Positions 3-54,107 of a DNA stretch of 64,000 nucleotides are shown piece after piece (within the stretch, counting starts at the first letter, position 1; each line of letters opens with the position of its first letter). The notes beneath the pieces are model-generated. The model ran no database searches. It was given only the letters and a program-made list of their open reading frames with translations, and was not told where the DNA came from. A program made the translations under genes and the position numbers. The stretch comes from Loxodes magnus (Eukaryota > Ciliophora > Karyorelictea > Loxodida > Loxodidae), in contig CAMPDV010000224.1 in the NCBI GenBank assembly GCA_946699065.1, positions 248,001 to 312,000 on the forward strand, in the 5' to 3' direction.

Positions 3-1500
3 TTTTTTTTTAATTTCTTTGTTTATACTTTAAGTTTAAACAATAACACTTTATACTTATACTCAAACTAAGGTATTTTTACTTAGTTTGCTTTAATGCT
101 CTTCTATTTACTAAACTAATCTACTTTGTATCTTAAACTAGTTTAGTAGTTTTATGGTTTATTACAAGTTGCTTACTTTACATAATTGGCTATTTAAACC
201 ACGTTGTTTAAAATCGTTATACAAATATGTACGAATAGTCTGAGTAGGATGTACTTGCAACTGAAAAACCTATCATGAATAAACAAAAAATCATCGATAG
301 AGATCCTCATTGGGGTGATGTCTTAATCTTTATGCCAGTCACCTTACTTGCTATCTTATAGGTTTGGCTGTTCTATTATCATAGAAACTTCTGGGTTATT
401 ATCTGGGTCGTTTATGCTCTTATTCCTTTCCTTGACTTCATATCTCCTCACGATAATGGTAACTTAAGTAATAGAGTAGAAAAGAAGTGGGAAAACGATA
501 AAAGGTTTCTTATTCCCTTGTATTCGTTTTGGATTATTGACGTACTAGTTTACTTTTGGTCGCTTTATGTAGTTTCTACTGGTTAAATTTACGGGTGGAA
601 AGAATGGATTCTGTTCACTATCGCTTTAGGAAACTTATGTGGAGGAAACACAGTCAATGGACATGAACTAGCTCATAGAAGAGAAGGCTTACATAAGATA
701 ATGGGAACAATCTGTTTCTGTAAGATGATTTACTCTCATTTTTATATTGAGCATTTATTTGGACACCATATGAATGTGGCAACTGAAAACGATCCTGCTA
801 CATCTAAGAAAAACGAAATTCTTTATCCTTATATCATAAAGAGTGTAGTAGGTGGCTTTAGAGATGCTTGGAAAATAGAAAACTCTTGGTTCCATAGAAG
901 AAAGAGAAGTGCCTTTCACTACAGTAATAGAATGATTTGGTTCACTCTATTTCACGTTTTCCAACTATCAGCTGTTTACTATTTCTTGGGAAAGTAAACT
1001 TTGTATTATCACTTTTGGTATTCAGCTTGTGGAACATATTTATTAGAAACCGTTAATTATATTCGTCATTACGGACTTTAAAGATTAAAAAGCTAAGATG
1101 GTACTTTCGAGAAAATCGGTTTCACTCATTCTTGGAATGCTCCCTAACGTTTTACAAACTATCTTCTTTTCAATCTATAGAGACATTCCGATCATCACTA
1201 CGATTCAAGTCGTCCTTACTAAGTACTGAGATCGTTGGAGTAGTCTCCGATAATGCCTCATGGGTATTCAGTTTGTATTTTATTAGCGATGGTACCTCCA
1301 GTATGGTTTGCAATAATGAATCCGTATGTAGATGCTTTACACAAGAGAGAGGAGTTGAAGCCTAAAGTGAAAAGAAGAGTTTGGTATTTGATAGTAGGAA
1401 CTTTAGTAGTTTTATCAGGAGGATTAACATTAGCAATGATATTTGTGTGAAGTAAAAAAAGGAAAATTTTATAATTTTGTTACTAATCTAATAATTAACT
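3..1500 (+). repeat. Left arm of 1.5-kb near-perfect inverted repeat
   Basis: Pairs with 5157-6654 in reverse complement with no gap: positions sum to 6657 along the whole arm. I found about five mismatches in 1,498 bases: one at position 11, two at one codon (Asn versus Glu), one silent, and one His versus Gln codon. The arm spans about 270 bp of 5' flank, the whole AlkB gene and 50 bp of 3' flank. Identity breaks sharply after position 1500 and at positions 1-2. Non-coding flanks are as conserved as the coding part, so recent duplication or gene conversion is more likely than selection on protein. An assembly artefact cannot be excluded. Confidence 0.95.
275..1450 (+). CDS. AlkB-type alkane/fatty-acid hydroxylase, copy A
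   Basis: Integral-membrane di-iron monooxygenase of the alkane 1-monooxygenase family, expected to hydroxylate the terminal carbon of alkanes or acyl chains in a membrane. The 391-residue reading (TAA/TAG as Gln, stop TGA) has all the histidine boxes: HELAH at 130-134, EHLFGHH at 159-165 followed by NVATENDPA, NYIRHYG from 261, and LQRHSDHH at 301-308, then a PHGY motif typical of AlkB. Hydrophobic segments lie at about 18-60, 85-120, 215-235, 330-350 and near the C-terminus. The start is the first ATG of the motif-bearing frame. All 16 Trp codons are TGG, unlike most genes here. The twin copy is 5207-6382. The substrate is unknown; a XylM-like or fatty-acid hydroxylase role is possible. Confidence 0.93.
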
Positions 1501-5156: not shown

Positions 5157-6654
5157 AGTTAATTATTAGATTAGTAACAAAATTATAAAATTTTCCTTTT
5201 TTTACTTCACACAAATATCATTGCTAATGTTAATCCTCCTGATAAAACTACTAAAGTTCCTACTATCAAATACCAAACTCTTCTTTTCACTTTAGGCTTC
5301 AACTCCTCTCTCTTTTGTAAAGCATCTACATATGGATTCATTATTGCAAACCATACTGGAGGTACCATCGCTAATAAAATACAAACTGAATACCCATGAG
5401 GCATTATCGGAGACTACTCCAACGATCTCAGTACTTAGTAAGGACGACTTGAATCGTAGTGATGATCGGAATGTCTCTATAGATTGAAAAGAAGATAGTT
5501 TGTAAAACGTTAGGGAGCATTCCAAGAATGAGTGAAACCGATTTTCTCGAAAGTACCATCTTAGCTTTTTAATCTTTAAAGTCCGTAATGACGAATATAA
5601 TTAACGGTTTCTAATAAATATGTTCCACAAGCTGAATACCAAAAGTGATAATACAAAGTTTACTTTCCCAAGAAATAGTAAACAGCTGATAGTTGGAAAA
5701 CGTGAAATAGAGTGAACCAAATCATTCTATTACTGTAGTGAAAGGCACTTCTCTTTCTTCTATGGAACCAAGAGTTTTCTATTTTCCAAGCATCTCTAAA
5801 GCCACCTACTACACTCTTTATGATATAAGGATAAAGAATTTCGTTTTTCTTAGATGTAGCAGGATCGTTTTCAGTTGCCACATTCATATGGTGTCCAAAT
5901 AAATGCTCAATATAAAAATGAGAGTAAATCATCTTACAGAAACAGATTGTTCCCATTATCTTATGTAAGCCTTCTCTTCTATGAGCTAGTTCATGTCCAT
6001 TGACTGTGTTTCCTCCACATAAGTTTCCTAAAGCGATAGTGAACAGAATCCATTCTTTCCACCCGTAAATTTAACCAGTAGAAACTACATAAAGCGACCA
6101 AAAGTAAACTAGTACGTCAATAATCCAAAACGAATACAAGGGAATAAGAAACCTTTTATCGTTTTCCCACTTCTTTTCTACTCTTTCACTTAAGTTACCA
6201 TTATCGTGAGGAGATATGAAGTCAAGGAAAGGAATAAGAGCATAAACGACCCAGATAATAACCCAGAAGTTTCTATGATAATAGAACAGCCAAACCTATA
6301 AGATAGCAAGTAAGGTGACTGGCATAAAGATTAAGACATCACCCCAATGAGGATCTCTATCGATGATTTTTTGTTTATTCATGATAGGTTTTTCAGTTGC
6401 AAGTACATCCTACTCAGACTATTCGTACATATTTGTATAACGATTTTAAACAACGTGGTTTAAATAGCCAATTATGTAAAGTAAGCAACTTGTAATAAAC
6501 CATAAAACTACTAAACTAGTTTAAGATACAAAGTAGATTAGTTTAGTAAATAGAAGAGCATTAAAGCAAACTAAGTAAAAATACCTTAGTTTGAGTATAA
6601 GTATAAAGTGTTATTGTTTAAACTTAAAGTATAAACAAAGAAATTTAAAAAAAA
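5157..6654 (-). repeat. Right arm of 1.5-kb near-perfect inverted repeat
   Basis: Reverse complement of 3-1500 without indels and with about five substitutions. The gene in this arm points toward the gene in the left arm, tail to tail across a 3,656-bp spacer. Confidence 0.95.
5207..6382 (-). CDS. AlkB-type alkane/fatty-acid hydroxylase, copy B
   Basis: Same length (391 residues) and same four histidine motifs as copy A. Two residue differences were found: Glu instead of Asn in the segment after SPHDNGNLS, and Gln instead of His in DALQKREEL near the C-terminus. One further change is silent. It ends at TGA, and every Trp is TGG. The upstream 270 bp are also identical to copy A, so both copies should share promoter elements and expression. 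Nothing suggests that either copy is inactive. Confidence 0.93.
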
Positions 6655-17419: not shown

Positions 17420-18315
17420 GCCTTTAAGTTTAAAAGTTTAGAAGAGAGTAAAGGTAATTAGGTAAATATAGAAGTATTCAAAAAGGAGTAACTGGAGTTC
17501 TGAACAGAATAGAATCAAACATGAGATTAATTTCAAGAAAAGCTTTTTAAGTAGCAACTTCAACATTTAATGAATCATGCTATATAGACCTGAATTGATT
17601 ACCCTTTAAGCACATTATGGCTATAAAATTCTTCAGATTCTACCATAAAATTAAATAAGAAAGTATTGATTTTCCAAGATCAGCAATAGGTTCTCTTTTC
17701 ATTAATATATGGAAAAAAGGACTTCAATACTACGATTAAGTGTAGTAATTATCAGACCTTTATAATATCGATCTGCAGAATTAATAGAATAATACCAATC
17801 TTAAAACTTTTACTAAACATGTAAGAGAAAAAATACAACAATATTTCTACAAAGTAGCTACTGAATAATTTGGTAATCTTTAACAATTTCCACAAATTAC
17901 TTGTACTAAATTAAACAAATAGTATAGACGAGAAATTATCAGTATATATAAAATTAGAACCTAAACTTATAATTTCCGTAAGGATCTTTAAGATCGTCAT
18001 TACCCCATTGATAATCCCTATTGTATGTGTGGAGAGTATGAAACTTTCGAGCATTTCTTTAAATGTGTGTACTATTCTAATATAATGAATTGATTATCGG
18101 AAAAGATCGGAAATTATGACTTAAGGCGCCTTATACTATACGATCAAGAATATCTAAACTCATTTTCAAGGTCTAAATTAGAGTATTTAGAGTTATAGAG
18201 CAAAATATTTCACAAGAAGCTAATGACAAGGAGACTTGAGATTCTAGAAATGGAGAAAACAAAAAAGGAAGAAGCTAAAGATGAATAGAAGGAAGAAATA
18301 ATTAAAGAAAAATGA
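17420..18315 (+). mobile_element. LINE-like reverse-transcriptase C-terminal fragment
   Basis: The reading shows a run typical of the end of non-LTR retrotransposon polyproteins: YLG-like LGKYRSIQKG, a helical region with FNESCYIDLNWLPFKHIM, and a terminal zinc motif CMCGEYETFEHFFKC (C-x2-C-x7-H-x4-C), then a Lys/Glu-rich tail ending in tandem TGA TGA at 18313. TGA reads as Trp in DLNWLP and NIMNWLS. The catalytic palm (YxDD) is missing, so the element is 5'-truncated, as is common for LINE insertions. It lies in an interval absent from the paralogous block B, which supports insertion after the duplication. The upstream limit is approximate. Confidence 0.65.
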
Positions 18316-21393: not shown

Positions 21394-22569
21394 TCAAAGA
21401 TAGAAACTCTTATAATTTTATTTAGTTATAAAAATTCTTATAATCGTTTTGATTTAAAGCTTATTTGTTTATATTTACTTCAAGCTGTGTAATTCAAAAG
21501 CTTTATCACTTGCTAGAATATAGTTTCCTCTATCATTTAGATATTGACTCATATTATTAAATTTGTGTAACTTGAACAATAATTAATTTCCTGTTTATCA
21601 CTAAGAAATATATTTCCTATGGGCCTTTTTGCTTAAAGGATTTATCTTATATAAATTTAAGTTTAGACTTTCTACTGTTTTATTTAAAATTTATGCGCAT
21701 TCTTATAATTACTATTGTGTCGCTCATTTTTTACCCCAAAATTCAAACAAAACTATTATTGTATCTCTATTTTACTTTAAAATTTCCTGACTTCCTTATA
21801 TAGCTAGACAATCTAAACCTTCTATATCTATTTTTATAAAGTCAATTGGACTTAAAGCTTATTAGTGCAGGAAATCTAGACTTTAGGTAGTTATTTATTT
21901 GGTATTTTCAATTTTTATTCATTTTTTTTAATTTCTTAGACTATTATTATAGTAGATTACAAAGGAGGTTCCTGTTCTAGAAGTCTTAGCAAATTTTTTT
22001 TCAGTTTTATTGTTTGAAATTGCTTGTTGTATTAATCTGATTTTTTCATTTAAGAAAGGAAACTTCTTAGCATTGAGTCAGATATTATACTCAGATATAG
22101 CGATCTATAAATCTCCGATCTCATAAGCCGTTATAGATCAGGATTTTTAGTATTTTTCCAGAAAAAGAGCCATAACAATTGTATGAACACCTATATTGTT
22201 TCCACACTCAATTACCACTTTTGCTTTTTTCATAATTCGAGAGTATAAACTAAATATAGCAGAATGATCCTCAAACCTGTTTCAAATTTAGTCCTCCCTT
22301 CAAATTGCTTTTACGTCTTAACTTAAGCTTGTAAGATTAAGTGAATTATCTAAAACATTAAAATTGAAATATTCTATAGGTTCTTTGGTTTATGCCTTTA
22401 TTTTGCTTAAGTACTATTCATCTGATCTTTATATTATCATAATTTTTTCATTTTTTATGCTTTTTTTCTCCAACAAGTCTAATTTATTTCTCCCTTGGAT
22501 TACTAAAAGATACCAAAATGTTATTAGCAAGATAAAAAGTAGCAAGCTATGATATATTGTTATTTTCAT
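21394..22569 (-). CDS. Membrane-anchored FkbM-type methyltransferase, copy 1
   Basis: SAM-dependent methyltransferase of the FkbM family, 391 residues, stop TGA. A hydrophobic N-terminal anchor (SLLLFILLITFWYLLV, from about residue 6) suggests a type II membrane protein of the secretory pathway. The SAM motif is VIECGNNIGVHT, followed by SITAYEIGD; IDFIKIDIEG is the family acidic motif; then FEFWGKKWATQ. At least six Trp residues are TGA (for example KSWSIT, KKWATQ, QWQTG), matching W in copies 2 and 3. An unbroken frame and conserved residues suggest it is functional. A 197-bp stretch (21668-21864) is identical to copy 2 although flanking coding sequence has diverged. The acceptor is unknown; family members usually O-methylate sugars or small molecules. 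Confidence 0.85.
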
Positions 22570-23907: not shown

Positions 23908-24565
23908 AAATGGGAAAAGAAGCAGATGGTTTAGGAATAGGACCTCTTTAAGTAGTATTGAAAGTAAAAATAGAAATAGTAATAATTGAAAGAAACTATT
24001 AAGAGGCGAAGTCATTTGATTAGATGAAAATAGCTGGTAAATGTCCACTTATCTTTATTCTATATTAACCTGGAAATTATGATATTATTTATTCTAAGGA
24101 ATAATCTGATTGTCGTTACTTTCGATGAAGTAAATGAATAATATACTAGATAAATCAAAATTCCTAAAGATTATGATATTCATAGCCCAGGCGCTCCATT
24201 TTTTGTAGAAATACCTCAAAATGGTTAAGAATGTCCTATGTAAGAATTTGAACAGTTTTAGATAAAATTTGATTTCCCTTATATAAGTACTTAGAAAAAT
24301 AAAGCATTGCTACAAAATTCATAATTTTAAAATGTAGTGTATGCTAATAATATATAAACTAAACTCGGTTTGTAGATCTCTAATGCAATCATAAATTTTG
24401 TATTTTTTGCTTGCAAGAGTAAGTAGCACAAAAAACTGGAGGAAAGATAATCTTAAACAGTAATGAAAGTGGATAAAGACCAACTTGTTTAACTTGTAAT
24501 AGAATATTATCTGAATAAGAGTTAGAAGGAATAGTAGGAAAAGAGAAATTTGATAAAACCAAGAA
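23908..24565 (+). pseudogene. Decayed copy of the otubain / second RING region
   Basis: About 85-90% identical to 16187-16830. It starts abruptly at the codons for MGKEADGLGIGPLQ, lacking the catalytic Cys half. The active-site His of PGHYD is replaced by Asn (PGNYD, near 24075). A one-base insertion near 24110 shifts the frame in the region homologous to SDVDTFDE. The zinc-finger part is partly lost: the first Cys pair is not conserved. This is clearly a dead, 5'-truncated duplicate. The segment ends near where the block A copy begins extra C-terminal sequence. Confidence 0.85.
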
Positions 24566-25815: not shown

Positions 25816-26943
25816 TCATATTTACTTAAAATGCTTATTTGTAAGTACGTATTTCAAATTGTGTAATTCAAGAGCTTTATCGCTTGCCATCACATAGTTT
25901 CCTGTATCTGTTAAGCTTTAATTTACAGATTTAAATTTAAACAAGTTGAACAACAAATGCTTTCCTGTTTATCACAAAGAAATATACTTTCTAAAGGATT
26001 TTTTTGTTATAGGAGTTATTTTATATAAGCTTAAGTTTAGGCTTTCTACTGTTTTATTTAAAATTTATGCGCATTCTTATAATTACTATTGTGTCGCTCA
26101 TTTTTTACCCCAAAATTCAAACAAAACTATTATTGTATCTCTATTTTACTTTAAAATTTCCTGACTTCCTTATATAGCTAGACAATCTAAACCTTCTATA
26201 TCTATTTTTATAAAGTCAATTGGACTTAAAGCTTATTAATGAAGATAGTCTAGACTTTAAGTAGTTATTTGCTTGGTATTTTCAATTTTCATTCATTTTT
26301 TCTTATCTCTATAACTATTACTATATTATATTATGTAGGAAGTGCCAGTCCTAGCAGTCTTAGCATATGTTTTTTCAGTTTTATTGTTTGAAATTGCTTG
26401 TTGTATTAATCTGATTTTTTCATTTAAGAAAGGAAACTTCTTAGCATTGAGTCAGATATTATATTCGAAAATAGCAACCTATAAATCTCCGATCTCATAA
26501 GCCGTTATAGATCAGGATTTTTAGTATTTTTCAAGAAAAAGAGCCATAACAATTGTATGAACACCTATATTACTTCCACACTCAATTACCACTTTTGCTT
26601 TTTTCATAATTCGAGAGTATAAACTAAACATAGCTGAATTATCCTCATACCTATTTCAAATTTAATCATCTCTTCAAGTTGATTTTACTTCAGATTACAA
26701 ACTAGTAAGATTGAGTGATTTATCTACGGCTGTCAAACTGAAATATTCAATAGGTTCTTTTGCTTTTTCATATATTTTCTATAATTATTAGTAATGCTAT
26801 GTTTCTTGCTTCTTAATGCTTACATTTTAGATACTATTAAGCTTTATCAATTCTAATTTCTTAGTTTATTAGGCTATTAAAAGATATCAAATTGTTATAA
26901 GTAAGGGAATAAAGACCAAACCATAGTATAACGATATTTTCAT
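25816..26943 (-). CDS. Membrane-anchored FkbM-type methyltransferase, copy 2
   Basis: 375 residues, intact, stop TGA. It has the same architecture as copy 1: an N-terminal hydrophobic anchor (LVFIPLLITIWYLLIA), SAM motif VIECGSNIGVHT, IDFIKIDIEG and FEFWGKKWATQ. TGA is Trp at the same places (TIWYLL, KSWSIT, KKWATQ, LWQTGK). The N-terminal third differs clearly from copy 1, while 197 bp over the IDIEG-to-KWATQ part (26042-26238) are identical. The third family member is at 44817-45974 on the other strand. Confidence 0.85.
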
Positions 26944-28783: not shown

Positions 28784-30610
28784 ATGCTTCTTGGAGGAGG
28801 ATGCTGTCCTAATAAATAGAATTAGACTGCTGAGAAGTTACAAGGAAAGTAGGATAATAAGGAAAAAAAGGGGGATGAAAAATCGAGGGATATGATTTCT
28901 AATCAAGAGACTGATGTTGAATCACCAATCGCACAGAATCCTGTGAAAGAAAATAAAGCTACTTTAGAAAATGCGAACAAGAGTGAAGAGAATGAATAAG
29001 CTTTTGGAGCTGAATAATCTAACTAGTTAGTAAAGCCTGAAGAAGTAAAAATTAATAAAAGTGAAGAGATAAACTACATACCTTTGGAATTTTAAATAAA
29101 GGATGAGTCGAAATTGGAAAAGCTTAAAAGATAAATAAAAGAGCAAAATAATAAAGATATAATAAAGTAAGTAGGCAAATATGCTTTAAGATAGAAACTA
29201 GGAGTAGGTGCATTTGGAAAAGTTTATTTGGCTACTTTAAAGGATTTAGAAGAATAAATAACATTTTACGCTATAAAGGAAATGCCTTTACGTTCAGGAC
29301 CAACTTCCAAAATAGTTAGATGTCTTCTAACAAAGCGTGAAATTAATAACATGATAAGAGTTCAGCACACTAACATAGTACAGTTAATTGACGTCGTATT
29401 TACTAGTAACAACTGCTATCTTGTGATGGAATATTGTGAAGGGGGAAATTTGAAAGAATTTTTTAAGGCTAATAACTAGACAATGTCAGAAAATAATGCT
29501 CTTTATTTTGCTAAGCAAATGGTCGAAGGTCTTTAGGCTCTTTGTAACAACTATATAATACATAGAGATATAAAGCCTGAAAACATACTTCTTTCCTAGC
29601 CAGGACCTACCCCAATTTTCAAAATATGTGATTTGGGTTTCTCTAAAAATGTGAAAGATGAATCTGAAGGTAAAACTAAATGCGGCACTCAGTAATTTAT
29701 GGCTCATGAGATTTTAAAGGGAAAGACAAAATATAATTATAAAGTTGATCTTTGAAGTCTTGGAGTTATCTTGTACGAACTTATCTCAGGTGGCATCAAT
29801 CCATTCCCTGGTATATCTGATTACTAAATAATTAGCAACTAACTGATTGGACCAAATATGGATAAATTAAACTGTTCATAGTCATGCAAAGACTTTATTT
29901 AAAATCTCCTCTAATGCTAAGATTTCAAAAGAATGTCCTTCCAAGAATTTTATAATCATCCTTGGTTAAAATCATCTAAAGTTGAGTAACTAGAATTTAG
30001 CGTAAATTAGTTTACTGCTAAGCTATAAAATAAATAGCTGGAAGAGAATTTATAAGAAGTGGTTAATAAATTAAACGGAAGTCTAGGAACTGCTTAGTAA
30101 TTAATGGAAGAAGCTGATGAAATATAAGAGGAAAAGGAAATTAGTTTAAAGACATGCATATTATTGCTTGCTTGCTCTATACTAAAACATTAAAAAGACG
30201 AGCATGAGGCTTTTAGAAAGCAAGATCAATAAATTTAGAAGTGTCTAAAAAATATAGATAGCCTTTAGGACAAAATTGGATAGTAAATATACTTTTGCCG
30301 CGAGTAATAACTTACTCAAAAAAATCCTTTTATCCCTAACACATAAGAGATAATTAACACAATTCAAAAAAGATACGAGAACATTATTCAGCATTTAAAC
30401 GACACCAAATTAAAATACATTGTAGAGTCAGCTTTATCATATATCGGAGTTTTAGCCTCTGTACCATCTTCTGAATATTGGCAAGAATAAGACTATTGGT
30501 TGGAATAGCCAGAAGTGGAAAATACTCAGCTTGAACCAACAAAAAGCGTAATGAAGGAGGAAAAAAATGGAGAAGAAGAATGGGAGTAACTTAATTTAAA
30601 AACTATTTGA
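28784..30610 (+). CDS. Serine/threonine protein kinase, ULK/Atg1-like candidate
   Basis: 608 residues. The N-terminal 130 residues are charged and low-complexity after MLLGGGCC. The kinase domain covers about 132-390: glycine loop LGVGAFGKVYLA from 139, Lys165 in YAIKEM, HRDIKPEN from 260, and metal-binding DLG (not DFG) at 283, then GTQQFMAHE where most kinases have APE. The DLWSLGVILYEL helix contains a TGA at 29753-29755 that must be Trp324, while three other Trp codons are TGG. A roughly 210-residue tail may hold a small helical domain. Hinge and insert features recall ULK/Atg1-type kinases common in ciliates, but the subfamily is inference. The stop is TGA at 30608. Confidence 0.9.
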
Positions 30611-36461: not shown

Positions 36462-37118
36462 TCATAAACATTTGCATGAGGTATATCTTTTTCTTGAGCA
36501 GCATAGTTAACTATTACTAATTCCATTTATAAAAGTATTCTATACACTTGATAAGAGAAATGAACTATTGTCGGATCTGTTTGAACTATAAGTTAAAGTT
36601 TCTGATTTCGAAATCAAGTTGGTTAAATGTGTTTATGCAAGTCATGTAAATATTTCTTGAACATTTAGACCTTAAACAGCAGAACTCTCATAAAAGGCAT
36701 TAATATTCAAATCATTTGCAAGATTTTATCCGTCTTCTGTTGAAACTTCTCCTTCCTAAATATCGATTTTGTTTCCTACTAATACAACGGGAATCTTTTC
36801 CACATCAGCTTACTTCGCAAACTCATCATATCAAATGCTTACATTTTAAAAACTTTATCGATTAGACACATCGTATACAATTATGCAACCATCTGCGTTT
36901 CTATAAAAGCCTCTAATTGCAGCTCGAAATCTTTCTTAACCCGCAGTGTCTCAGATATTTATTTTCATCTTAAAATCATTTATCTAAATTTCTTTCACTT
37001 CCACATTAGAAACCACAGTCTATGTAGTTTCTAAGAAAATTTCTCTTTCAGGGTAAATAAACTTAAAAAGCAACGAGGACTTTCCTACTCCAGAATCTCC
37101 AATAAGAATAAATTTCAT
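36462..37118 (-). CDS. Rab-family small GTPase
   Basis: 218 residues; a membrane-traffic switch. All G motifs are present: GDSGVGKSS at 7-15, switch II WDTAGQERF, NKID and ESSA. Three Trp residues are TGA: 36951-36953 in WDTAGQE, 36831-36833 in SIWYDEF and 36642-36644 in FTWLAQ. Gln in AGQE is TAA. The effector region (ETTQTVVSNVEVKEI) is unusual, as most Rabs have a TIGVDF-type motif, so this is a divergent, possibly ciliate-specific Rab. The C-terminus CKCL is a CaaX box expected to be geranylgeranylated, directly followed by TGA at 36462; this fixes TGA as stop in the same gene where it is also Trp. Confidence 0.92.
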
Positions 37119-46414: not shown

Positions 46415-47430
46415 TCATTACTTTTTCTCCGCTAATTATTTCTTTTAATTTATTGCTTTATTTTCTTATTTCTAGTTGCTTGCTATGTTAGGAACATTTT
46501 CTTACTTTTATCTAAGATTAAAAATTACCTTTCTAGGAAATTAGAAATGAAATCTATTCTCGCTTTCAGTCATTGCTAAAACTCTTCACTAAAAGGACCT
46601 AAACTACTCACTGCTGCTAGAAGAGCTTGATATCTTTCCAGCGGATTGAATTTTAACGCAAATCACATCTTTCTTAGACATATCGGACATAAATCAACAG
46701 GTCTTGATCTCGCTTCTTCGTGAGTCATAGATCCATTCATCGCACATTTATAAAAAACGCAATGAGACATTCCAAATAAATGTCCAGTTTCATGAGTTAT
46801 CACTTTAACACAACTCATAAGAAGTCTTGATCTATATAAATCAGGAGCAGGTTTTGGCTCTCCATAAAATGAAGGATCATATCTCGCAAAGCTAAAAACA
46901 CCTGCTCTAATAGATTTATCAGCTAAACCGAAAACAAAATTTCAACTTTCTCGAGGATATAGATCAAACATCGTAGCTCCTAAAATGCAATAAGCGTTTT
47001 AAGGACGACTAGAAGAAAGCTTTTATAGTATTTAGTAAGCATAATATTAAACTTGTCCATCAACTCCTGTTCTACTTTTAATTCCTTTCAAATTAGAAGT
47101 TTATAAAACTTTTACTTTCATTCCTAAATAAAAAGCTGACACAGTATTCAAAAGAGCTTCTTAAATTTCTGTTGATACGTTTGCATCTAAGGGCTAAATA
47201 TATATAGTATCAAGCTATTTGCCAGTCTAATTTTTATGATTTGCTTTTCATATATCGAATGTTTAAGGTGATTGATTTTAAGTATATAACCAGTCATTAG
47301 GCTAAGGTTTTCCTAAAGGCTTTCAAAACGTATTTATTTCTTATAACGCAGGTTAAATTTCTGGTTCAATATTAGCACCAAGAGCTTACCTTCTTTTTTC
47401 AGCAGGTATATAATCAGAACTTTCAACCAT
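46415..47430 (-). CDS. Archaemetzincin-like zinc metallopeptidase
   Basis: Family M54 (archaemetzincin/AMZ) peptidase, 332 residues after removal of a 17-nt intron (46512-46528). The complete signature is present: HETGHLFGMSHC at 213-224, then a Cys five residues on, a Met (CAM), and CPIC after 17 residues, that is HExxHxxGxxHC-x4-CxM-x17-CxxC. The catalytic Glu and three zinc-binding His residues are intact. The N-terminal 100 residues with QPLDAN and AFYLGMKVKVL match the family beta-sheet core. Five Trp are TGA and one TGG. The C-terminal tail is Lys/Gln/Glu-rich. The substrate is unknown, as for most members. Confidence 0.93.
46512..46528 (-). other. 17-nt intron in the archaemetzincin gene
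   Basis: Minus strand GTAATTTTTAATCTTAG. Removal extends the frame into a charged tail that soon reaches TGA at 46417 and makes the CDS length divisible by three. The same length and end bases as the intron in the TUL1-like gene support it. Confidence 0.65.
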
Positions 47431-50346: not shown

Positions 50347-51299
50347 TCATTCAGCTTCGTTTTGCATTTGAATAACTAAATCTTGGCTAAGATCTGCTTC
50401 ATCTTCCTTATTTTAGGTTTTAGTCCTTTTAATATTCTAAATAAGTACTTAAAACATACCTGTAAAATCTACTCTGGAAGTGAACTATAATTTTAAGAAA
50501 CTTCAGCTCATGTATTTTGAAAAAAAGCATCAATAACTTCAATAAAGCTCTCAACTCCCTAGTTTTAGAAACTATCTTCAAGCTAAATTTTCCTAAGATT
50601 CATTTCTCTTTTGATATTAACTTAGAAATTTCCATTCTCAAAGCAGAAAACGTTAATCTAGACATCTCCTTAGATTTCACTACTTTTTAGATTTAAGACA
50701 AATTAACCTATTCATTAATAGTTTCACTACTCCTATATATTTAAGGAGTTGTCAGTCTAGATATTTCTTTAAAAAGAGGAGACTATGATATGATAAGTCG
50801 ATTCGTTCTTGTCATCATAGAACACTTTTCCAACTTTTATCTAACTCCTAAAAGCCTCTTATACATAATTACTAATAACCCTCTAAAGCCTTTACTATTA
50901 CCTATCTAAGTTATATTAATCCTGCGTAACCTAGTTAGCTTCGAAATTTATAGGATCAAACTAGAAATAAATTCCGCTTTCTGGATCAACAAAAACGAAC
51001 TTTTATATGTTTTCAATATTATATTTGGATAAAATGCTATACTGCTTCTTTAAGCTTTAAATCTCATAATCATGTCCTTCTTGACTCTTAATTTCTATAA
51101 TAGTATTACATGTTATCAAGTTATCTACTATCTACTTGCAGGTTTCTTCTGTATATATTTAATTATCTCTAATCAGGATTTTTAGGCTTCGTAATATTTC
51201 CTCCATTTCATAAGGTGGAGAATTAGCTATAAAATAAGAAATCTACTCTTAGTAAGGATGCACTTTTCTGTTTTCCTAGCTTGTTCTTTCTTCCTCCAT
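50347..51299 (-). CDS. F-actin capping protein alpha subunit
   Basis: Alpha subunit of CapZ, the heterodimer that caps the fast-growing end of actin filaments. 309 residues after removing a 23-nt intron. Near the N-terminus is FIANSPPYEMEEILRSLKN, the family SPPGE-like start; the mid part FVFVDPESGIYFQFDPINF and the EQWNYQWIGQF motif match the conserved NFWNGRWRS region, with two of its Trp as TGA; a VQINVFCFENGNFQ strand and a C-terminal helix ending QNEAE follow. Another Trp-TGA (NTWAEV) lies 46 codons before the TGA stop. Typical alpha subunits are about 270-290 residues, so the C-terminal tail is slightly extended. No beta subunit gene is seen here. Confidence 0.88.
50437..50459 (-). other. 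23-nt intron in the capping-protein gene
   Basis: Minus strand GTATGTTT...TATTTAG. Length is 2 modulo 3; splicing joins SLPEQILQ to NIKRTKTQNKEDE in frame and yields a complete codon count. Confidence 0.75.
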
Positions 51300-51929: not shown

Positions 51930-54107
51930 TCACTCAAAGTTAGAAGGCCTTCTGATGATTTGCTTATTTATCAACTGCTTTACAAAAGATTGAATTTTTT
52001 CTGTTTCTGTTGGCTTTTGTAAAACATAATCCATGCCAAAACTATAGCATCTTTTGATATCGCTTGCACAATTATATGCGGTATAGCCTACAATATATCC
52101 TTTGTATCCTAGTTTTCTTATTTGTAAAGTGGCTTCTCATCCATCCAAAATTGGCATTTAGCAGTCCATAATGATTAGACTAAACTCTTTGCAGCATTTA
52201 CTTTATTACCTTTATTTAACAATATCAATAGCCTCAGCACCATTATATGCTTCCTAAATCTTATATTTCTATAATACTTCTTTAAGTATCTGCAATATCA
52301 TTCAAGTATCATCAACTATCAATATTTATTTGCATGAGCATTTTAAAAAAATGCTTGACATTGTTTAAAACTGAAAAATAGGAACTTTCATCTCTTAGTC
52401 ATTGCGGTTTTCATTTTAATTATTTAGGAGCTTAATGTTCATTATAGACTAATGCTAAACTTAGTTTTTAATGTAAAATACAAATTTAGATCCTTTATTT
52501 AGCTCTGAATAAACTTCCAATGTTTTATTACTTATTTTCTTAACATAAAAAGAACTCAAATAAAGCGGTAAGCCTAGTCCTTATGGTTTGTTAAGGTTAA
52601 ACTTCTTGTCGTTTATAAAAGACAAAATTTTGAACAGCTAATTCTGCTTCTACTTATCCATTCCTATTCCTGAATCTTTTACAGTGAATTTAATAAAATC
52701 CTAATGAGGCTTCACGCTTAGTTTAATAAATCCTTGCATAGTATATTTCGTTGCGTTTATAAGCAAAGTAGTTAGAATCTAGCGAAGTCTTTATTTATCA
52801 GTTTAGATCTGACCGTTAGTTTTAGGATCAATTTTAGTAATTAGCTAGATTTTCTTCTACTCACACTAGTTTCTTATATACTTAAGCACATCATTTATTA
52901 CTTCATACAGTTCAAATACTTCTATTTTTAGTTCAAAAGTATTAGATTCTATTGAACTTAAATCCTGCATTTGGTTAGAAAGATTGAGCAAGTATCTGGT
53001 GTCACTCTCAATTTACTTAATTGACTTTTGAATTTCTTACTAGCTTCTTTATGATTTTTCAAGATTAAGCCAACTAATAGTGCTTAGTATATTAGTGCAG
53101 GGATGTAAGACTTCATGGGAGAACTATCTTATAAATATCGTTTTGTATACGTTCTTTTGGATTTCGCGCTCTAATTTAGCTAGTTTGGTAAAGTCTATAA
53201 AATTTAGTATAGTGCATTTATCATCTCCTAGTATTGTATTAAAACCTTGAATCTAGAAAATTAAATTCTGATCGTTTATTGTAAGTTAAATCAAGCCAAA
53301 ATCCTTCTAGTTCTAAGGCTGGATATAGTCATAGTAGGCATTTTATTCTACATAGGCCAGAAGATCATCAGGAAAAGTATTTTAAGACTATTCATTTTGA
53401 CAGGCATCTTCCTAATAATACTTAGCCTAGTTCAGAACTTTGAAGATATCACAGCTTTAAAACTTCTCCTTTATTATGTTATTCTGAAGTAAGATTTTAT
53501 TGGAGGAAAAGATGAGTATTCCACATTAGCTACTGTTAGCTATGAACTCTCACTAGATCTTTTATAGTTTGTTTTTGACATTTCTTTTATAGCTCATCTA
53601 GTTTTCTTTGTCATTCCAGTAGAATAAAAGACAGATAAATAGAAATATAGTTATGCTGTTGTACAATAGAGATCCCATTTCTCCTGTTTACTTCTATTTG
53701 GAGAATAGGAATAAGAACATTAATCCAAAACATGCTAGAAAAGGAGGAAATTAGACTTTAAAACTTCGAAATGCGTTATTTCCCCAGAGTGTGTTTATAA
53801 TAGTAAACCACAACATACCTGTAGTAGGACATTTTGGATTTTCGATTAAAGTGAAATAACCACTAGAATAAATAGCGATCAACCCTAGTACACCAAGGTA
53901 TTTAGTTTTCGAAGGTTTCTTTAAGATTATCAATAAGCTAATGAAAGAAAACAGAAGAGTAATTAGCGTTGAATAATACACCACAAACGGTCATAATAGA
54001 AACTCAACAGCAAATTTAGCTAAACTGATAATCCAGACATAAGGAATAATCATTTTCAAAAATTGTATATTCGCTTTTTCAATAAACTGACACTAAGTCT
54101 TGAACAT
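51930..54107 (-). CDS. Hybrid sensor histidine kinase with receiver domain
   Basis: 725 residues, single exon, stop TGA. N-terminal membrane part with about five hydrophobic segments (first near 18-35 with IIPYVWIISLAKFAVEF). A central sensor-like segment (about 190-320) includes NFIDFTKLAKLEREI. Then the HisKA box FSHEVLHP with phospho-acceptor His331, the N-box INATKYT, G1 DSGIGM (from 478), G2 GLGLPL, and a C-terminal receiver with VDD, acceptor Asp648 in IMDCQMPILDG, and Lys in VLQKP. Phosphotransfer from His to the internal Asp is expected, a two-component relay as known in ciliates. Four Trp-TGA codons (for example LLWPF, DTWMIL, DGWEAT). The signal sensed is unknown. The promoter side faces the 54.1-55.4 kb gap. 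Confidence 0.93.

What the first reader, a model, noticed from the sequence alone, without database searches (positions are those of the whole stretch)
36462..37118. TGA is both Trp and stop within single genes; TAA/TAG are Gln
The Rab gene uses TGA for the invariant Trp of WDTAGQE and again as the stop right after its CKCL prenylation box. The kinase (29753), capping protein, histidine kinase and FkbM genes show the same. Gln in AGQE and LQRHSDHH is TAA or TAG. This is a context-dependent code, known from karyorelict ciliates; the window gives a compact demonstration across many conserved motifs.
Basis: partly seen in the sequence, partly recalled or inferred. Interest (0 to 1): 0.75.

Follow-up and report, generated by a model that had tools for sequence, protein, structure and literature searches.

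The report
Ciliate stop codons with two meanings
In this ciliate genome the codon TGA means both 'tryptophan' and 'stop', as already published for this kind of organism, but some genes also seem to end at TAA, a codon thought to mean only glutamine here.

Summary
The Rab gene (36462-37118, minus) reads TGA at the invariant Trp of WDTAGQE, and TGA ends it after CKCL; TAA encodes the Gln of AGQE. The genome behind the window has 705.7 Mb, matching the published Loxodes magnus macronuclear assembly (706 Mbp), whose code (UAR=Gln, UGA=Trp or stop) is in print. The finding as given is known. In Ras-family loci of the same genome the codon before D[TI]AGxE is TGA in 45 of 83 cases and TGG in 33. New here: of 48 genes with a dicysteine prenylation tail, 39 have TGA within four codons; the other nine have no TGA within ten, and all nine have TAA at or just after the motif. 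G+C falls to UTR level after those TAAs, six of the nine genes were tested and show purifying selection, and TAA but not TAG is depleted before TGA stops. UAA is probably a second, minor, context-dependent stop, against the published 'UGA only'. Against this: Arf, Ran and nearly all histone-family ends use TGA, and Loxodes eRF1 is reported UGA-only. tRNAs and eRF1 could not be searched.

The parts
36462..37118 (-). Rab-type GTPase gene: 218 codons and stop, three internal TGA, no TGG, 8 TAA, 4 TAG
36951..36953 (-). TGA read as Trp of WDTAGQE
   Evidence: aligned to Sec4 Trp; in-genome Ras loci TGA 45 of 83, TGG 33 of 83
36831..36833 (-). TGA read as Trp (SIWYDEF), Trp in Sec4
36642..36644 (-). 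TGA read as Trp (EIFTWLAQ); paralogue L102 has TGG here, L101 TGA; not Trp in Sec4
36462..36464 (-). TGA as stop after CKCL
29753..29755 (+). TGA read as Trp of kinase DLWSLG
28784..30610 (+). Protein kinase gene, TGA stop at 30608-30610
50724..50726 (-). TGA in CapZ alpha gene aligned with a CapZ Trp
50712..50714 (-). TGA in CapZ alpha gene aligned with a second CapZ Trp
46570..47430 (-). Archaemetzincin (M54) gene, four internal TGA; codon 163 (46942-46944) lies in a Trp column
51930..53600 (-). Histidine kinase with receiver domain, in-frame TGAs 53550, 52302, 52137, TGA stop 51930-51932; 5' limit not fixed
21480..22233 (-). FkbM methyltransferase-like gene, copy 1, five in-frame TGA; 3' limit not fixed
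25860..26607 (-). FkbM methyltransferase-like gene, copy 2, five in-frame TGA; 3' limit not fixed
227..1450 (+). AlkB-like (FA_desaturase) gene, 16 TGG and no internal TGA, Q of LQRHSDHH is TAG, TGA stop

Best explanation
The window is macronuclear DNA of a karyorelict ciliate, almost certainly Loxodes magnus. UAA and UAG are read as Gln and UGA as Trp inside coding regions. Near the 3' end of the mRNA, UGA is instead read as stop, probably because eRF1 is helped there by the nearby poly(A) tail and its binding proteins (the mechanism proposed by Swart et al. 2016). Shown here from sequence: TGA at conserved Trp sites, TAA/TAG at conserved Gln sites, and TGA as stop in the same genes. Inferred: the poly(A) mechanism and the tRNAs. 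My addition, also inferred from sequence: UAA works the same way as a minor second stop (judged apart in the section on the most novel reading).
For: Genome of 705,730,643 bases in 7,843 contigs against 706 Mbp published for the L. magnus macronucleus. Codon before D[TI]AGxE in 108 fetched loci and the window gene: TGA 45, TGG 33, other 5 of 83; Gln site TAA 49, TAG 15, CAA 7, CAG 5, other 2 of 78. TGA follows a dicysteine tail within four codons in 39 of 48 genes, directly in 35. Stops are TGA in 5 of 5 Ran genes, in 24 of 30 histone-family loci and in 18 of 20 Arf ends. G+C falls from 0.317 to 0.192 after TGA stops.
Against: No transcript, protein or ribosome data. tRNAs and eRF1 were not examined. 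Three of four TGAs in the archaemetzincin gene, one in CapZ and one in Rab lie in places that are not Trp in the homologues compared. The absence of TGA from the last 40 codons of 44 Ras-family genes does not count for the model, because TGG occurs there only once.
Confidence: 0.94

Rival explanations
1. UAA is only Gln (code 27 as published). The nine TAA-tailed Rab genes really continue past the cysteine motif to a TGA 16-128 codons downstream, or are degraded copies.
For: Publications name UGA as the stop of Loxodes and UAR as Gln. A review passage says altered Loxodes eRF1 motifs together give UGA-only specificity. Arf (18 of 20 ends), Ran (5 of 5) and 24 of 30 histone-family loci end at TGA. 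A codon-model scan of 359 kb gave TAA no more gain than control codons.
Against: All nine dicysteine genes without a nearby TGA have TAA at the motif; an estimate from the tails of TGA-ended genes gives about 2e-8, rough because some are paralogues. G+C falls to UTR level after these TAAs (0.209 against 0.322 after internal TAAs; combined rank p 3e-7, single p 0.003 to 0.08). L105 and L107 are 142/191 identical up to CCKN|TAA and unlike afterwards. Replacement changes are far rarer than silent ones in the six pairs tested. The scan did not separate even TGA from AAA (2889.9 against 2852.6), so it has no power. A Rab whose cysteines are not terminal would not be expected to be prenylated (general knowledge).
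Confidence: 0.25
2. The in-frame TGAs mark pseudogenes of a plain ciliate code (UGA = stop only).
For: The window holds duplicated genes, such as two FkbM and two AlkB-like copies.
Against: TGA sits at the Trp of WDTAGQE in 45 of 83 cases, and only 5 of 83 hold neither TGA nor TGG. The paralogue pairs compared are under purifying selection.
Confidence: 0.02
3. A different ambiguous code, as in Condylostoma (code 28, all three stop codons dual) or the dinoflagellate Amoebophrya.
For: UAA also appears as a stop.
Against: TAG was never the only terminator in 48 dicysteine genes; TAG is not depleted before stops (30 TAG to 34 CAR near, 56 to 109 far, p 0.09); the assembly size matches L. magnus. 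Intron lengths say little: in a permissive search none of 27 first-listed introns was 15 nt, the heterotrich length, and 8 were 16-17 nt.
Confidence: 0.04

Closest known systems
Karyorelict nuclear code, NCBI table 27 (Loxodes magnus, Parduczia)
   Same: TAA/TAG = Gln, TGA = Trp inside genes and stop at their end; TAA scarcer before the stop and TAG not, as reported for L. magnus (PMC11441545: abstract, section 9 and passages seen)
   Different: The papers name UGA as the only stop; here nine dicysteine Rab-type genes, plus L086 and L117, appear to stop at TAA
Condylostoma magnum code, NCBI table 28 (PMC4967479: sections 9 and 11 and passages seen)
   Same: UAA can be Gln or stop, UGA Trp or stop, with position deciding
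   Different: In Condylostoma UAG is also a stop; here no gene was found that ends at TAG alone. UGA is the main stop here and UAA a minor one
Blastocrithidia code (start of the abstract of PMC12153298 in a search listing only)
   Same: All three stop codons have a sense meaning and UAA is dual
   Different: There UAR = Glu and UAA is the stop; here UAR = Gln and UGA is the main stop
Amoebophrya sp. ex Karlodinium veneficum (PMC12005148, passages seen)
   Same: UAR = Gln and UGA = Trp judged likely, with contextual termination
   Different: A dinoflagellate; its terminating codons are not resolved in that paper

Membership tests
NCBI code 27 (karyorelict) | TGA encodes Trp inside genes | tested here: met
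   TGA 45 and TGG 33 of 83 at the Trp site of D[TI]AGxE; kinase, CapZ and M54 alignments, with some TGAs outside Trp columns
NCBI code 27 (karyorelict) | TAA and TAG encode Gln | tested here: met
   TAA 49 and TAG 15 of 78 at the AGQE Gln; M54 Gln columns
NCBI code 27 (karyorelict) | TGA also ends genes | tested here: met
   39 of 48 dicysteine genes; Ran 5 of 5; Arf 18 of 20; 24 of 30 histone-family loci
NCBI code 27 (karyorelict) | TGA is the only stop | tested here: not met
   Nine of 48 dicysteine genes have TAA at the motif and no TGA within 10 codons, plus L086 and L117; sequence evidence only
NCBI code 27 (karyorelict) | Depletion of in-frame TGA before the stop | tested here: inconclusive
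   0 TGA in the last 40 codons of 44 genes, but TGG only once there too
NCBI code 28 (Condylostoma) | TAG also ends genes | tested here: not met
   TAG never the only terminator in 48 dicysteine genes; TAG not depleted
Loxodes magnus macronuclear genome | Assembly size 706 Mbp | tested here: met
   705,730,643 bases
Loxodes magnus macronuclear genome | Introns mostly 16-25 nt, mode 17 | tested here: inconclusive
   Of 27 Rab tails resolved by one putative intron the first-listed one is 16-17 nt in 8, 20-29 nt in 19, 15 nt in none; permissive search, no RNA data
Loxodes magnus macronuclear genome | 18S rRNA identity | not tested
   No named eukaryote collection to compare with; not attempted
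UGA decoding by tRNA-Trp | tRNA-Trp(CCA) with 4-bp anticodon stem, or tRNA-Trp(UCA) | not tested
   Genome searches unanswered. No tRNA in the window by ARAGORN with the bacterial setting. The 4-bp stem is reported for Loxodes in passages seen
UGA-restricted release factor | eRF1 with altered NIKS/YCF motifs | not tested
   PF03463 searches unanswered (first, last); L. striatus motifs are listed in a review passage

The most novel reading that the evidence does not exclude
In Loxodes magnus UAA is, like UGA, both sense (Gln) and stop, with position near the mRNA end deciding; UAG alone is purely sense. Single genes then use UGA for Trp, UAA for Gln and UAA for stop (L072, L105 and L107: TGA at the WDTAGQ Trp, TAA at its Gln, TAA at the end). 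The karyorelict code would be an intermediate between codes 27 and 28, and the published UAA depletion before stops would be explained.
Probability: 0.7. Interest if true: 0.7.

Novelty: new variant of a known kind. Interest (0 to 1): 0.52.

Why it matters
The UGA part confirms a published code in a large gene family of what is very probably the same genome; that part is already known. If UAA is a second context-dependent stop, gene models made with UGA as the only stop are wrong for perhaps one dicysteine Rab-type gene in eight (10 of about 75 resolved). The code would also be caught in an intermediate state: UAG fully reassigned, UAA mostly reassigned but still terminating, UGA mostly terminating. 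That would make models of how stop codons are captured, and what eRF1 must still recognise, directly testable in one cell, with paralogues ending at TGA and TAA as natural controls.

Tried and rejected
Model-based scan: a codon/Markov gene model on 359 kb (139 sequences) asked whether allowing TAA as stop fits better than control codons. TAA gained 257.5, AAA 268.8, CAA 253.9, AAG 301.5. Starting from a nonsense stop, TGA gained 2889.9 and AAA 2852.6, so the scan has no power and counts neither way.

First gene finder: it allowed only TGA stops and cut the Rab gene at its third TGA; used only to list genes.

The first enrichment count did not show TAA above other codons after a cysteine motif (TAA 9 of 451, AAA 17 of 649, TGA 32 of 132), because it counted positions inside CCK-type motifs. 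The gene-by-gene count replaced it; one search confirmed that no gene fell between its classes. Dropped before that count: L042, L046, L049, L063, L103 (no NKxD-anchored gene found) and three spurious second anchors (L019, L089, L096). 57 of 105 genes had no motif in frame, five of them Ran. One search took the other 52 with one 15-30 nt intron allowed: 22 gave TGA, 4 TAA then TGA within two codons, 1 TAA alone (L086), 25 nothing. That search tries many splice choices without a control, so it is supportive only.

Putative TAG stops: L001 and L002 end CCK-TAG-TGA and L023 ends CC-TAG-x-x-TGA; paralogue L032 has TGG at that place in L023, so TAG is taken as sense there.

Not obtained: eRF1 and tRNA searches, further families with conserved ends, and 40 of the 150 scored Ras hits (721 candidates in all). 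Seah et al. 2022 (Peer Community Journal) and its preprint are not held, so I could not check whether UAA ends were discussed there.

Full report
Observation. The Rab gene reads as described. On the minus strand 37118-36462 it has 218 codons with TGA at codons 56, 96 and 159 and a terminal TGA after CKCL. Pfam Ras matches at 3.4e-48. Sec4 has Trp at the first two sites, not at the third; there paralogue L102 has TGG and L101 has TGA. The kinase TGA at 29753 is a Trp in ULK3 too. Two of three CapZ TGAs align with Trp. Archaemetzincin codon 163 lies in a column with Trp in 111 of 119 letters, while its other three TGAs lie in F, F/Y (Trp in 5 of 111) and Q/H columns. Three of its 16 TAA/TAG positions lie in clear Gln columns (112 of 112; 102 of 111; 76 Gln), the rest in variable ones (120 listed homologues).

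Where it is from. The window is part of a 705,730,643-base assembly in 7,843 contigs. Published L. magnus assemblies are 848 Mbp (germline) and 706 Mbp (somatic). The paper states that UGA is the only stop and also Trp, that introns have mode 17 nt, and that UGA and UAA but not UAG are depleted before stops. The finding as given is therefore known, in what is very probably the same genome.

Genome-scale test. 108 loci were fetched for Ras hits of the 150 scored (721 candidates); with the window gene, 104 of 109 gave 105 anchored genes. Scanning all 109: before D[TI]AGxE TGA 45, TGG 33, others 5 of 83; at the Gln TAA 49, TAG 15, CAA 7, CAG 5, others 2 of 78. Many are paralogues and some near-copies, so they are not independent. 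In 44 TGA-ended genes no TGA occurs in the last 40 codons, but TGG occurs there only once, so this family cannot show TGA depletion.

The new point. 48 of 105 genes carry an in-frame dicysteine motif 60-118 codons after NKxD. In 39 a TGA follows within four codons (directly in 35). In the other nine no TGA follows within ten; no gene lies between the classes. In eight of these TAA comes directly after the motif (L028 SCNC, L041 CCN, L069 CSC, L072 CCY, L077 CCF, L079 second gene CCKL, L105 and L107 CCKN); in L108 it follows CCFKC. A four-codon window in the tails of TGA-ended genes holds a TAA with frequency 0.14, giving about 2e-8 for nine of nine; paralogues make this a rough figure. G+C of the next 60 nt is 0.209, near that after TGA stops (0.192) and unlike that after 295 internal TAAs (0.322) (combined rank p 3e-7, single values 0.003 to 0.08). 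L105 and L107 are 142/191 identical up to TAA and show no similarity of note after it. In six pairs that include six of the nine genes, silent divergence is saturated or nearly so while 0.16-0.32 of replacement sites differ, so these are working genes. L105/L107 and L072/L077 keep TAA at the end while 8 of their 14 shared Gln positions use different Gln codons (few positions). L028 (TAA) has a TGA-ended paralogue, L014. Each of the nine has internal TAA and TGA between the first GTPase motif region and just past NKxD, and L072, L105 and L107 have TGA at the WDTAGQ Trp and TAA at its Gln; they lie on large contigs, so contamination is unlikely. TAA is scarcer near TGA stops (23 TAA to 64 other Gln codons within 20 codons, 168 to 165 at 31-140 codons, p 5.9e-5); TAG is not. 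Swart et al. take such a drop as a sign that a codon terminates near the mRNA end, and report it for UGA alone in Parduczia. The base after terminal TAA is T or C in 8 of 9 and in 127 of 537 internal ones; T-rich UTRs could explain that.

Other families. Histone-family loci (30): TGA at the end in 24; L117 reads LTDM-TAA-TAA-TAA where paralogue L115 has LTDV-TGA; L114 has LTDM-TAA with TGA five codons later; four showed no clear end (read by eye). Ran: TGA in 5 of 5. Arf: TGA in 18 of 20 ends taken from the 150 scored hits, none TAA, two broken frames; many are tandem copies. So TAA ends are concentrated in Rab-type paralogues and may be rare in strongly expressed genes (the expression part is a guess).

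Against. Two papers name UGA as the stop with UAR as Gln. A review passage reports that Loxodes eRF1 motifs give UGA-only specificity. The model-based scan showed nothing but had no power. No RNA or protein data were available. I searched the literature library for Loxodes with UAA and stop codon (5 papers), with tRNA and UGA, with eRF1 and for karyorelict with UAA and related terms (20 of 110 listed), and saw no report of UAA stops in Loxodes in the listings and passages seen; the key 2022 paper is not held.

Mechanism. Shown: the codon statistics. Inferred: UAA and UGA far from the poly(A) tail are won by tRNA, near it by eRF1; UAG is read by tRNA throughout. A 4-bp-stem tRNA-Trp(CCA) is reported for Loxodes by others (passages) and was not checked here.

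Noticed in passing
window 227-1450 (+) and 5207-6430 (-): Two nearly identical AlkB-like (FA_desaturase, LQRHSDHH) genes in inverted orientation; each has 16 TGG and no internal TGA but uses TAA/TAG for Gln. Trp-rich genes may avoid TGA. The AlkB label is from memory; NCBIfam gave no family.
   Followed up: partly
G000 contigs C921, C976, C212, C644, C1167, C140, C454, C313: Arf GTPase genes form long tandem arrays of nearly identical copies about 0.8-0.9 kb apart.
   Followed up: no
window 21480-22233 (-) and 25860-26607 (-): Two near-copies of an FkbM methyltransferase-like gene with five in-frame TGAs at the same places, as if a longer segment was duplicated; a stretch like part of the Otubain-like gene recurs at 23910.
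   Followed up: no
window 17617-18315 (+): Open frame with a Cys/His cluster that recalls the C-terminal zinc motif of retroelement reverse transcriptases (from memory; no Pfam hit; no NCBIfam hit).
   Followed up: no
L031, L052, L053, L060: Rab paralogues whose spliced tails read CC-TAA followed by TGA within two codons; tandem stops or a CCQx tail.
   Followed up: partly
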